A stretch of DNA of 64,000 bases from Nocardiopsis gilva YIM 90087 (GTDB lineage Bacteria; Actinomycetota; Actinomycetes; Streptosporangiales; Streptosporangiaceae): NCBI RefSeq assembly GCF_002263495.1, contig NZ_CP022753.1, positions 5,696,312-5,760,311 on the forward strand, written 5' to 3'. The translations under genes and the position numbers were made by a program. The notes beneath the pieces are model-generated. The model saw only the letters and a program-made list of their open reading frames with translations. It had not been told where the DNA came from and did not search any database. Positions 35,977 to 40,132 of this stretch are shown one piece after another. Position 1 is the first letter of the stretch, and each line of letters begins with the position of its first letter.

Positions 35977-36365
35977 AGAGAGTTTCCGACAACTCCAGAA
36001 AAGGGCGGGCGTGACTGATAGGACAGACAGTACTAATGTGACGAACACCGGTGTTGCATCCGGAACCGATGTCTTTCTTCCTCGATCACAGTGAACGCTG
36101 CCCCATGTCGTTAGACTGACCCCCACTGAATCCATTCCCCCTACTCCCGGATTCTCTGTCAGCCGTATGGGCGGAGAGTGAACCCCTAACGAACGATGGT
36201 TCACCGCGCCTCGTAGGCTTACGGCGAGTAGGCGTCGGACATCCGAATGTGAACGCAATACGTCGGCAGGTCCCGCCCCTTCCTCCGTGCCGGCGATTCT
36301 CTCCACAACACCCCCGTCCTCCCGTCGGAGCAGGACCGGGGCGCCAGAGCCAAAGGAGCACCTCG
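35977..36365. other. Intergenic region upstream of the coiled-coil gene
   Basis: This 389-bp stretch is richer in A and T than its neighbours, as expected for a promoter and leader. I see no RNA gene, terminator with a U-run or convincing -35/-10 pair. The only clear signal is AAAGGAG just before the GTG at 36366. Confidence 0.6.
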
Positions 36366-38585
36366 GTGGAACAGTCCAACCACAACTTCCTCAACGGAGG
36401 AGGTCAGACCGGGATCTCCGACCGAATGCGGGACCTCCTCTCACGGGCCGCGCAGGACCAGGTCTCGGAACAGAAGACGCAGGGCGCGATCTCCGAGGAG
36501 ATGCGCCAGCGCCTTGAGGGCATGGAGTGGCTGCTACGCGAGTTCCGTGAGCGGGAGTTCGCCACGCTGGCGGAGGGCCTCGCGGCGGTACAGAGCCGCG
36601 TCGACGAGCTCAGCACGCGTCCGCCGGAGTGGGCCGAGACCCTCGCCGAGCACATCGCGCTGGTCGGCGAGCGGGTCAAGCCGCTGGCGGAAATGGCCAC
36701 GCTGCGCACCGACGTCCGCCAGATCGGCGGCAACGTCGACACGGCGCTGACCCGGCTGCAGAGCGTCGCCGAGACGGGATCCCGCACCGCGGCCCAGGTC
36801 GACGCGGTGAGCGAGCGCTTGGAGGAACTGGCCTCCACCATCGAGGCGCGCTTCAGCCGCGCCGACGAGGCGATCGAGTCGCTGGCCGCCCGCGCGGAGG
36901 CCCTGGAGACCGCGATCGCGGACGTCGGCGAGCGCGTGGACGGTCGGCACGAGGCCGCCATGGGCGCGGCGGCCGAGCAGCACGAGGCCCTGACCACCGC
37001 CGTCACCGAGGGGCGCGCCGCCCTGGAGCAGGCGGTCACCGAGGGCCGGGAGGCGCTGGCCGCGGCCGTCACCGAGCGGCACGAGGCGCTGCAGGAGACA
37101 CTGCGCGAGCAGCACGAGGCGGTCACCACCAAGCTCGACGACGGCGTCCAGACCCTGACCGGCACGGCCCAGGAGCACCACAGCACCGTCACCACGCAGC
37201 TGGAGACCACCGCCGAGGAGCTGGGCGGCAAGCTCGACGGCGCGACCGAGACCCTGAGCGGCAAGCTGGACAGCGCGTCCGAGGAGCTGCGGACCAAGGT
37301 CGACGCCAGCACCGAGGACCTGCGCGGCACCGCCGAGACGCACCACACCGCCCTCACCGCCAAGCTCGACGACGACGTCCAGACCCTGACCGGCACGGCT
37401 CAGGAGCAGCACGAGGCGCTGACCACCGCTCTGCGCGAGAGCGTGGCCAACCTCAGCACGCAGGCCGACGAGAACCACGCCGAGGCCACCGCCGCGGTCG
37501 CCGACACCAACAGCGCGGTCGTGAAGCTGGCCGAGGCGACCGACGAGAAGCTCGGTTCCGTCAGCGCCCACCTGCGCGAGCGCCTCGGTGAGCTGAACGA
37601 GCAGCTCGAACTGCAGCGCGCCGAACTGCGCGAGCGCGACGACCAGCAGCGCGAGAGCATCCTCGCCCGGCTCGCGGAGACCACCGAGACCCTGCGTACC
37701 AAGGCCGAGGAGGACGTGGCGGCGGCCACCTCCGCCCTGGCCGAGATGCGCACCTCCCTGGACCGCAGCGTCCGCGAACTCAACGAGAAGGTCGACGAGC
37801 GGCACACCGCCCTGACCGAGCTGGGCGAGCAGCACCGGGCGGCGGTGACCGAGCACCTGGAGCAGCACCGCACCTCGGTGGACGAACGCCTGGAGGAGTA
37901 CCGCACGTCCGTCGACGAGCGCCTGGACCAGCAGCACCGGGAGCTGAGCGGCAAGGTCGACCAGCACCTCAGCTCCATCACCGGCAAGTACGAACACGGC
38001 CTCGGCCGACTCTCCGACCGCTTCGACACCTTCGAAGGCCACTTCGAGGGCAGCTTCGAAGGCATCGACGGCAAGATCGACGGTGTCGACGGTCGCCTCG
38101 ACGGCCTCAACGGCCGCCTCGACGGAATCGAAGGCCGGGTCACCGGCGTCGAAGGCCAGTTCGAGGGCGTCAACGGCCACATCAGCGGGGTCGACGGCCG
38201 CCTGGAGGCCGTGGACGACCGCCTCGAAGCCCTCAACCAGCGCCTCGGCCAGCTGCCCGCCTCGATGGAGGTCAGCGAACTCCACCGCCGCCTCACCGAA
38301 CTGGTCGACCGTCCGGTCATCGACCACTCCGACCGCTTCGACGCCGTCGACCGCAGCCTGCTCGAGTCCCTGGAGCCGATCCTCCGCGAACTCCAGAACC
38401 GCCCCGACCGGCACGAGTTCGAAGAGACCATCAACGAGGCCGTGGAAACGTCCCACGACGACGTCACCAAGCGCCTGGCGTCCCTCGAAGAGACCATGCT
38501 CGCCCTCGCCGAGGCGCTGCTGCGCCCCGGCCGCGACGGCAAGAAGAAGCGCCGCCGCGACGAGGATGACGAAGACGACGAGTAA
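36366..38585 (+). CDS. Large coiled-coil protein with acidic C terminus, function unknown
   Basis: The 739-aa protein is almost wholly helical and charged, with no signal peptide or membrane segment. Heptad-like repeats run from about residue 20 to 560; two nearly identical units around KLDDGVQTLTGTAQE and KLDDDVQTLTGTAQE are encoded 228 nt apart. From about 555 to 630 a seven-residue pattern of the IDGRLDG type repeats about ten times, where Gly-Asp spaced motifs replace coiled coil. The tail is a basic KKKRRR block followed by an acidic end. It resembles chromosome or cytoskeletal scaffold proteins in architecture only. GTG 36366 has AAAGGAG 7 nt upstream. Confidence 0.8.
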   Translation: MEQSNHNFLNGGGQTGISDRMRDLLSRAAQDQVSEQKTQGAISEEMRQRLEGMEWLLREFREREFATLAEGLAAVQSRVDELSTRPPEWAETLAEHIALVGERVKPLAEMATLRTDVRQIGGNVDTALTRLQSVAETGSRTAAQVDAVSERLEELASTIEARFSRADEAIESLAARAEALETAIADVGERVDGRHEAAMGAAAEQHEALTTAVTEGRAALEQAVTEGREALAAAVTERHEALQETLREQHEAVTTKLDDGVQTLTGTAQEHHSTVTTQLETTAEELGGKLDGATETLSGKLDSASEELRTKVDASTEDLRGTAETHHTALTAKLDDDVQTLTGTAQEQHEALTTALRESVANLSTQADENHAEATAAVADTNSAVVKLAEATDEKLGSVSAHLRERLGELNEQLELQRAELRERDDQQRESILARLAETTETLRTKAEEDVAAATSALAEMRTSLDRSVRELNEKVDERHTALTELGEQHRAAVTEHLEQHRTSVDERLEEYRTSVDERLDQQHRELSGKVDQHLSSITGKYEHGLGRLSDRFDTFEGHFEGSFEGIDGKIDGVDGRLDGLNGRLDGIEGRVTGVEGQFEGVNGHISGVDGRLEAVDDRLEALNQRLGQLPASMEVSELHRRLTELVDRPVIDHSDRFDAVDRSLLESLEPILRELQNRPDRHEFEETINEAVETSHDDVTKRLASLEETMLALAEALLRPGRDGKKKRRRDEDDEDDE

Positions 38586-38643: not shown

Positions 38644-39091
38644 CCTCAGCCTGTGGAAAGTCTCGCCGCTCTGGAGATGCCTGACCTACGCTCGACCACA
38701 GACAGCGCCCGGCCGGGGAGCGCATGGGGAGCTGTCGGCAGGTTCGCGGTAACCCGGCTCGGGCGGCTCCCGGCCATATGCAGAAGGCACACGCCCGCTA
38801 GTGTCGCCACCGTTCGAGACAGTCAGATGGCCGCCAAGCCACAGGAGATCCCGCGAAATCGAGATTCTCGGCGTCTTCCAGCTACCACCCTGGAGCCACA
38901 CTGCGACATCACAAGAACATAACGCGCCACATTTCAGCAGGTCATTTGCTGTAAGCCGCGCACGCGGGGGTGGACCGCGCGCCCGCTACTGGCAGCAGCG
39001 CGCCATCAGGTAAGCCCCGCACATGCGGGGATTCCTGACTTGACGTGCCCGAGCCTTATCCGCTGGAGGGAAAGGTGGGATCCACTCGCCG
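38644..39091. other. Intergenic region holding the CRISPR remnant
   Basis: Between the terminator of the coiled-coil gene and the stop of tsaD there is no credible gene. The two CRISPR-like repeats at 38951-39038 are the only structure I recognise. The segment 38860-38950 is AT-richer than the surrounding sequence. Confidence 0.6.
38951..39038 (+). CRISPR. Vestigial type I-E CRISPR: two degenerate repeats, one 32-nt spacer
   Basis: Repeat 1 (38951-38977) begins GTAAGCCGCGCACGCGGGGG and ends TGGACCG; repeat 2 (39010-39038) begins GTAAGCCCCGCACATGCGGG and ends in GATTCCTGA. Both share GTAAGCC and the CCCCGC-loop-GCGGGG stem of 29-nt type I-E repeats common in actinobacteria; repeat 1 has lost two C residues and repeat 2 diverges at its 3' end, as terminal repeats do. 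The segment between them (38978-39009) is exactly 32 nt, the canonical I-E spacer length. A relatively AT-rich stretch on the left could be a decayed leader. No third repeat is present 61 nt to either side, and there are no cas genes in the window. Confidence 0.65.
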
Positions 39092-40132
39092 TTAGACCGC
39101 GAGAGGGCGGTTGATCGGCAGGGAGGTGTCGGTGGCCAGGTCCAGGGTGGACGGCGGCAGGCCCGCGGCGACGACTTCGGCGCCCAGGGCGGCGATCATG
39201 GCGCCGTTGTCCGTGCACAGTCGGGGGCGGGGGACGCGGAGTTCCACCCCGGCCTCGGCGCAGCGCTGTTCCGCCAGGGCGCGGATGCGGGAGTTGGCGG
39301 CCACGCCGCCGCTGATGACCAGGCTGCCCACGCCGTGTTCGACGCAGGCGTCCACCGCCTTGCGGGTGAGGACGTCGGCCACGGATTCCTGGAAGGCTGC
39401 GGCGATGTCGGGGACCGACAGGTCGCTCCCGTTGCGCTCACCGTCCTCCACCCATCGGGCGACCGCGGTCTTCAGGCCGGAGAAGGAGAAGTCGTAGGTG
39501 CCGTCGCCCCACTTGCCGCGCGGGAAGCGGATCGACCTCGGGTCGCCCTCGCGGGCCGCGCGGTCGATGTGGGGGCCGCCCGGGTAGGGCAGGCCGAGCA
39601 GGCGGGCGACCTTGTCGTAGGCCTCGCCCGCGGCGTCGTCGACGGTGTCGCCGAGCGACTGGACGTCGGTGGCCACGTCGCGCACCAGCAGCAGGGAGGT
39701 GTGGCCGCCCGAGACGAGCAGTGCGATGGCGGGCTTGGGCAGCGGGCCGTGTTCCAGTTGGTCCACGGCCACGTGGCCGACCAGGTGGTTGACGCCGTAG
39801 AGCGGCTTACCGAGCGCGAGCGCGTAGGCCTTGGCGGCGGAGACCCCGACGAGCAGCGCCCCGGCCAGGCCCGGCCCCGCCGTGACGGCGATCGCGTCGA
39901 CGTCGGAGAGTTTCGCCCCGGCGCTGTCGAGCGCGCGGTGCACGGTCGGCACCATCGCCTCCAGGTGGGCGCGGCTGGCCACCTCGGGAACGACGCCGCC
40001 GAAGCGGACGTGCTGCTCGACGCTGGACGCCACCTCGTCGCCGAGCAGCTCGCAGCCGCGGACGAGGCCGACGCCGGTCTCGTCGCACGAGGTCTCGATC
40101 CCCATGATCAGGGGCAGGTCACGGTTGCTCAT
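39092..40132 (-). CDS. tsaD: tRNA N6-threonylcarbamoyltransferase TsaD
   Basis: TsaD transfers threonylcarbamoyl to A37 of ANN-decoding tRNAs, with TsaB and TsaE. The 346-aa protein opens with [16 protein letters not shown], has the metal-binding histidines in GVNHLVGH, the ASKH-fold loops [13 protein letters not shown] and YPGGPHID, and [14 protein letters not shown] near the end. ATG 40132 overlaps the rimI stop in ATGA. It is the last gene of the operon tsaE-tsaB-rimI-tsaD. Confidence 0.97.

What the first reader, a model, noticed from the sequence alone, without database searches (positions are those of the whole stretch)
38951..39038. Orphan single-spacer type I-E CRISPR remnant
Two degenerate repeats share GTAAGCC and the CCCCGC/GCGGGG stem of actinobacterial 29-nt type I-E repeats and are separated by exactly 32 nt, the canonical spacer length. 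Repeat 1 lacks two C residues. No cas genes occur in the window. The unit may be a decayed array, an off-site integration of a repeat-spacer unit by Cas1-Cas2 at a leader-like sequence, or a solitary regulatory repeat.
Basis: partly seen in the sequence, partly recalled or inferred. Interest (0 to 1): 0.7.

Follow-up and report, generated by a model that had tools for sequence, protein, structure and literature searches.

The report
Orphan one-spacer type I-E CRISPR array
It is a real but tiny, partly worn CRISPR memory with its own leader and one stored spacer, one of several scattered through a genome that keeps the CRISPR cutting machinery far away but no Cas1 gene for adding new memories: ordinary in kind, with a mildly unusual genome setting.

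Summary
In detail: two type I-E-like repeats (38951-38977, 27 nt; 39010-39038, 29 nt) flank a 32-nt spacer. It is not chance. The upstream ~43 bp plus repeat 1 recur at 87% identity (E 7e-18) at 1.734 Mb of the same genome, in front of another short array. The same leader/repeat type heads 4- to 12-repeat arrays in another genus of the family (G045) that has Cas8e and Cas1e. So this is a leader-repeat-spacer-repeat mini-array, orphan by position. The genome has a complete Cas3-Cascade operon at 4.33 Mb but no Cas1 in two profile searches, so the array probably cannot grow. Repeat 1 has lost two stem bases; repeat 2 keeps its hairpin but has a degenerate 3' end. The array lies downstream of tsaD, not upstream, in a stretch replaced by a Uma2-like ORF in the sister species. 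The spacer has no self-match and no convincing phage or plasmid match; the 1.734-Mb array's spacer does hit plasmid SCO6880-family genes next to AAN PAMs. Best reading: a frozen, decaying immune array whose single crRNA may still be made in trans. Off-site integration and a regulatory role find no support. New member of a known kind; low interest.

The parts
38908..38950 (+). CRISPR leader (..AAGAACATAACGCGCCACATTTCAGCAGGTCATTTGCT), ATAACGC and CAGGTCA motifs before repeat 1
   Evidence: 87% identity together with repeat 1 to the leader-repeat at G000:1734291-1734365; motif shared with leaders in G001 and G045
38951..38977 (+). CRISPR repeat 1, 27 nt, two stem C residues missing, 3' handle GTGGACCG kept
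   Evidence: Sequence; predicted stem 4 bp, -8.1 kcal/mol, no better than shuffles
38978..39009 (+). single 32-nt spacer
   Evidence: Sequence; no second copy of its first 24 nt in the genome at up to 3 mismatches; no convincing phage, plasmid or viral match
39010..39038 (+). terminal CRISPR repeat 2, 29 nt, intact CCCCGC-ACAT-GCGGGG hairpin, degenerate 3' end
   Evidence: Exact match to GTNNNCCCCGCNNNNGCGGGG; hairpin -12.9 kcal/mol, z -3.0
38672..39092 (.). about 420-bp intergenic stretch holding the array; in the sister species a Uma2-like ORF occupies this site
   Evidence: blastn and alignment with G001

Best explanation
A genuine leader-bearing type I-E CRISPR array reduced to one spacer. 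It is one of several short arrays scattered in this genome, which belong to a leader-repeat family found in relatives of the same bacterial family. Inferred mechanism: transcription from the leader through both repeats; Cas6e of the distant operon cuts at the repeat hairpins, most reliably at repeat 2; the one crRNA loads into Cascade and directs Cas3. With no Cas1 in the genome the array cannot gain spacers by the known route, and repeat 1 is decaying, so it is a frozen or fading immune memory. Shown: anatomy, shared leader, presence of Cas3 and Cascade genes, no Cas1 found. Inferred: transcription, processing in trans, current activity.
For: Repeat-spacer-repeat anatomy. Leader plus repeat duplicated at 1.734 Mb in front of a second mini-array. 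Same leader and repeat family before 4- to 12-repeat arrays in G045, which has Cas8e and Cas1e, and before arrays or a lone repeat in sister species G001. cas3-cas8e-cse2-cas7-cas5-cas6e operon at 4.327-4.335 Mb with open frames. No Cas1 by PF01867 or TIGR03638, while TIGR03638 found Cas1e in G001 and many relatives. The sibling array's spacer hits five plasmids, all in SCO6880-family genes, with AAG, AAC and AAT beside the three examined, fitting the AAN PAM reported for S. avermitilis (PMC12231136).
Against: No target identified for this spacer. The genome's Cas proteins are only about 31-43% identical to those of relatives using the same repeat family, so processing in trans is unproven. 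The repeat-1 stem is weakened. No expression data.
Confidence: 0.8

Rival explanations
1. Fully dead relic: the array is neither transcribed nor processed and simply decays after loss of an ancestral cas1-bearing locus. (This shares the ancestry claim of the best explanation and differs only in present activity.)
For: Deletion in repeat 1, degenerate repeat 2, no Cas1, no recognisable target. A stretch homologous to the leader and first repeats of the sister species' cas-adjacent array survives at 1.752 Mb.
Against: Leader, 3' handle of repeat 1 and hairpin of repeat 2 are all kept, and an intact-looking Cascade operon exists.
Confidence: 0.35
2. Off-site integration of a repeat-spacer unit by Cas1-Cas2 at a leader-like chromosomal sequence.
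For: Unit at a site where the sister species has other DNA; lone repeats occur elsewhere in the genome.
Against: The upstream sequence is a shared leader, not a chance leader-like site: ~43 bp homologous at an unrelated locus and related in other species. Two repeats with a terminal-repeat signature are present.
Confidence: 0.04
3. Solitary regulatory mini-CRISPR (CreR-like) that guides Cascade to a host promoter, for example that of the cas operon.
For: Single spacer, degenerate repeats, Cascade genes in trans.
Against: No other match to the first 24 nt of the spacer in the genome at up to 3 mismatches, and no seed match upstream of cas3 better than shuffled spacers. Short seed-only matches elsewhere were not tested. 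The site is not conserved in the sister species.
Confidence: 0.06
4. Chance resemblance, or a terminator or stem-loop without CRISPR ancestry.
For: GC-rich inverted repeats are frequent in this genome (69 loose pattern hits against 42 for the reversed control).
Against: Leader homology E 6.8e-18; 0 hits in 100 shuffles; matching arrays in relatives.
Confidence: 0.01

Closest known systems
Type I-E CRISPR arrays of actinomycetes (Streptomyces avermitilis CRISPR I/II, PMC4762764)
   Same: Type I-E repeats, spacers of about 32 nt, leader next to the first repeat
   Different: Here one spacer only, 1.4 Mb from the cas genes, repeat 1 shortened, no Cas1 in the genome
Scattered GTAAGCC arrays of family member G045
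   Same: Same leader motifs (ATAACG.., CAGGTCAT) and same GTAAGCCCCGC repeat
   Different: Those have 4-12 repeats and lie in a genome with Cas8e and Cas1e
Adaptation-less type I-E variants of Streptomycetaceae (tnsB/tnsC variant, Faure et al. 2019, as described in PMC12231136)
   Same: cas3-cas8e-cse2-cas7-cas5-cas6 without cas1
   Different: No transposase gene was recognised among the neighbours tested, and no array was found beside the operon

Membership tests
Type I-E CRISPR array | Direct repeats of about 28-29 nt with a GC-rich stem of about 6-7 bp | tested here: met
   Repeat 2 is 29 nt with a 6-bp stem; repeat 1 is a 27-nt deletion form with a 4-bp stem
Type I-E CRISPR array | 32-33-nt spacer between repeats | tested here: met
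   32 nt, 38978-39009
Type I-E CRISPR array | Leader next to the first repeat, shared with other arrays | tested here: met
Type I-E CRISPR array | Cas3 and Cascade genes of type I-E in the genome | tested here: met
   4.327-4.335 Mb
Type I-E CRISPR array | Cas1 for spacer acquisition in the genome | tested here: not met
   No PF01867 or TIGR03638 match in a one-contig genome; this defines a complete system rather than an array. Cas2 was not searched for separately
Type I-E CRISPR array | Spacer matches a mobile element beside an AAN PAM | tested here: inconclusive
   Best plasmid match 27/30 nt but preceded by GCC, and a reversed-spacer control gave E-values of similar order
Type I-E CRISPR array | Transcribed and cut by Cas6e | not testable with these tools
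   Needs RNA data
CreR-type regulatory mini-CRISPR | Partial spacer match with PAM in a host promoter | tested here: inconclusive
   Negative for the cas3 upstream region and for whole-genome near-matches to the first 24 nt; seed-only matches at other promoters not tested
TnsB/TnsC-associated I-E variant | tnsB and tnsC beside the cas operon | tested here: inconclusive
   No transposase domain among the neighbours tested; two large ORFs there match no Pfam or NCBIfam family

The most novel reading that the evidence does not exclude
A lineage that has lost Cas1 but keeps a divergent Cas3-Cascade operon with several dispersed one- or two-spacer leader arrays, as a fixed set of guide RNAs used in trans for host control or for standing immunity against plasmids.
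Probability: 0.08. Interest if true: 0.55.

Novelty: new member of a known kind. Interest (0 to 1): 0.22.

Why it matters
It documents how CRISPR memory may fade: a one-contig genome with interference genes, no Cas1 and several dispersed mini-arrays, next to a sister species with Cas1e. It also shows that a leader plus one repeat can sit at non-homologous sites. Useful for comparative work; not a new system.

Tried and rejected
Spacer against phages and plasmids: the best hit, a conserved ATPase gene in nine Streptomyces plasmids at 26-27/30, lacks an AAN PAM (GCC in all three examined), and a reversed-spacer control gave hits of similar order, so it was rejected. Viral-contig patterns: two exact patterns and the longest degenerate one gave nothing; two PAM-plus-seed patterns gave one hit each that diverged outside the seed. 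Self-targeting: none. CreR-like match upstream of cas3: none above shuffles. Rfam: nothing near a gathering score. Genome-collection scan with the leader junction: one hit, in a Ruminococcus MAG, taken as chance. A search of about 850 kb of this genome for the site matching the sister species' cas locus found no clear syntenic counterpart. A spacer of the 1.752-Mb array gave only weak scattered plasmid hits.

Full report
Observation. The repeat-2 core is unique in the window and absent from 100 shuffles. The array reads left to right on the + strand. It lies downstream of tsaD, which is on the minus strand (39092-40132), in a convergent intergenic region, not upstream of it.

Not chance. A search of the genome with 161 bp around the unit returned a second locus at 1734291-1734365, 87% identical over ~74 bp covering the upstream sequence and repeat 1, E = 6.8e-18. 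That locus is a leader followed by two repeats and one 33-nt spacer. Further units in the same genome: a leader with a three-repeat array at 1.752 Mb, a leader with a single repeat at 1.727 Mb, and lone or paired repeats at 1.723, 1.236 and 2.493 Mb.

Same kind elsewhere. The sister species G001 has a leader with a single repeat at 3.791 Mb, an array of about five repeats at 4.444 Mb, and cas-adjacent arrays with a related leader. In another genus of the family, G045, the leader ATAACGGCCCGCAAAGCCGCAGGTCATCTTCT and the repeat GTAAGCCCCGCGCACGCGGGGATGGACCG head several scattered arrays of 4 to 12 repeats with 61-62-nt periods, one about 10 kb from the Cas1e and Cas8e genes. A pattern for the leader-repeat junction hit 11 of 299 family genomes; the reversed control hit one. 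So the window unit is a true leader-repeat-spacer-repeat array.

Cas genes. Cas8e lies at 4330007-4331500, in an operon cas3-cas8e-cse2-cas7-cas5-cas6e at about 4327095-4335154 with open frames. No Cas1 was found with PF01867 or TIGR03638, although TIGR03638 found Cas1e above its cut-off in 35 of 120 relatives, G001 among them. Cas2 was not searched for separately. Cas8e without a full-length Cas1e is rare among these relatives: by my comparison of the two lists, only G000, G028 and G068, the last two being draft genomes. The proteins of the G000 operon are about 31-43% identical to those of G001 and G045. No array was found beside the operon and no transposase gene was recognised among the neighbours tested, so it is not clearly the TnsBC-associated I-E variant described in PMC12231136.

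Site history. In G001 the two flanking genes are conserved, but the space between them holds a Uma2-like ORF and no array (the Uma2 label is my reading of the sequence, not tested). The unit is therefore not conserved at this site.

Function. The leader, the 3' handle of repeat 1 (GTGGACCG) and the hairpin of repeat 2 (-12.9 kcal/mol, z -3.0) are kept; the stem of repeat 1 is reduced to 4 bp. One crRNA could still be made, but 5' processing may be impaired. Without Cas1 the array cannot grow by the known route. The sibling array's spacer matches SCO6880-family genes in all five plasmids hit, 27/33 in the three examined, with AAG, AAC and AAT beside them, consistent with past plasmid immunity and with the AAN PAM of S. 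avermitilis. The window's own spacer has no such match and no self-target.

Verdict. A genuine orphan mini-array, frozen and partly decayed; ordinary in kind, with the mildly unusual setting of interference genes without Cas1.

Noticed in passing
L036:6150-6251 (G000:2493149-2493250): Two I-E-like repeats with identical loops (CCCCGCTACCGCGGGGATGRTCC), 81 nt apart, lie directly upstream of a dihydrolipoamide-dehydrogenase-like ORF, with a GC-rich inverted repeat between them; possible regulatory or processing use.
   Followed up: no
L032:3405-3425 (G000:1723404-1723424, minus strand): A lone GTAAGCC repeat without a recognisable leader appears to be read in frame at the end of an ORF.
   Followed up: no
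L032:7610-7630 and L104:11224: A leader with a single repeat sits downstream of the same gene in G000 and in sister species G001, so at least one leader-repeat unit is conserved in place.
   Followed up: partly
G000:4327095-4335154 (L038:9096-17155): Complete Cas3-Cascade operon in a one-contig genome with no Cas1 found; flanked by TrkH and a DUF5753 regulator, with two large ORFs (775 and 629 aa) upstream of trkH that match no Pfam or NCBIfam family.
   Followed up: partly
window 36249-38585: A 778-aa ORF rich in repeated, coiled-coil-like segments next to the array; its sequence is conserved in G001 and several relatives.
   Followed up: no
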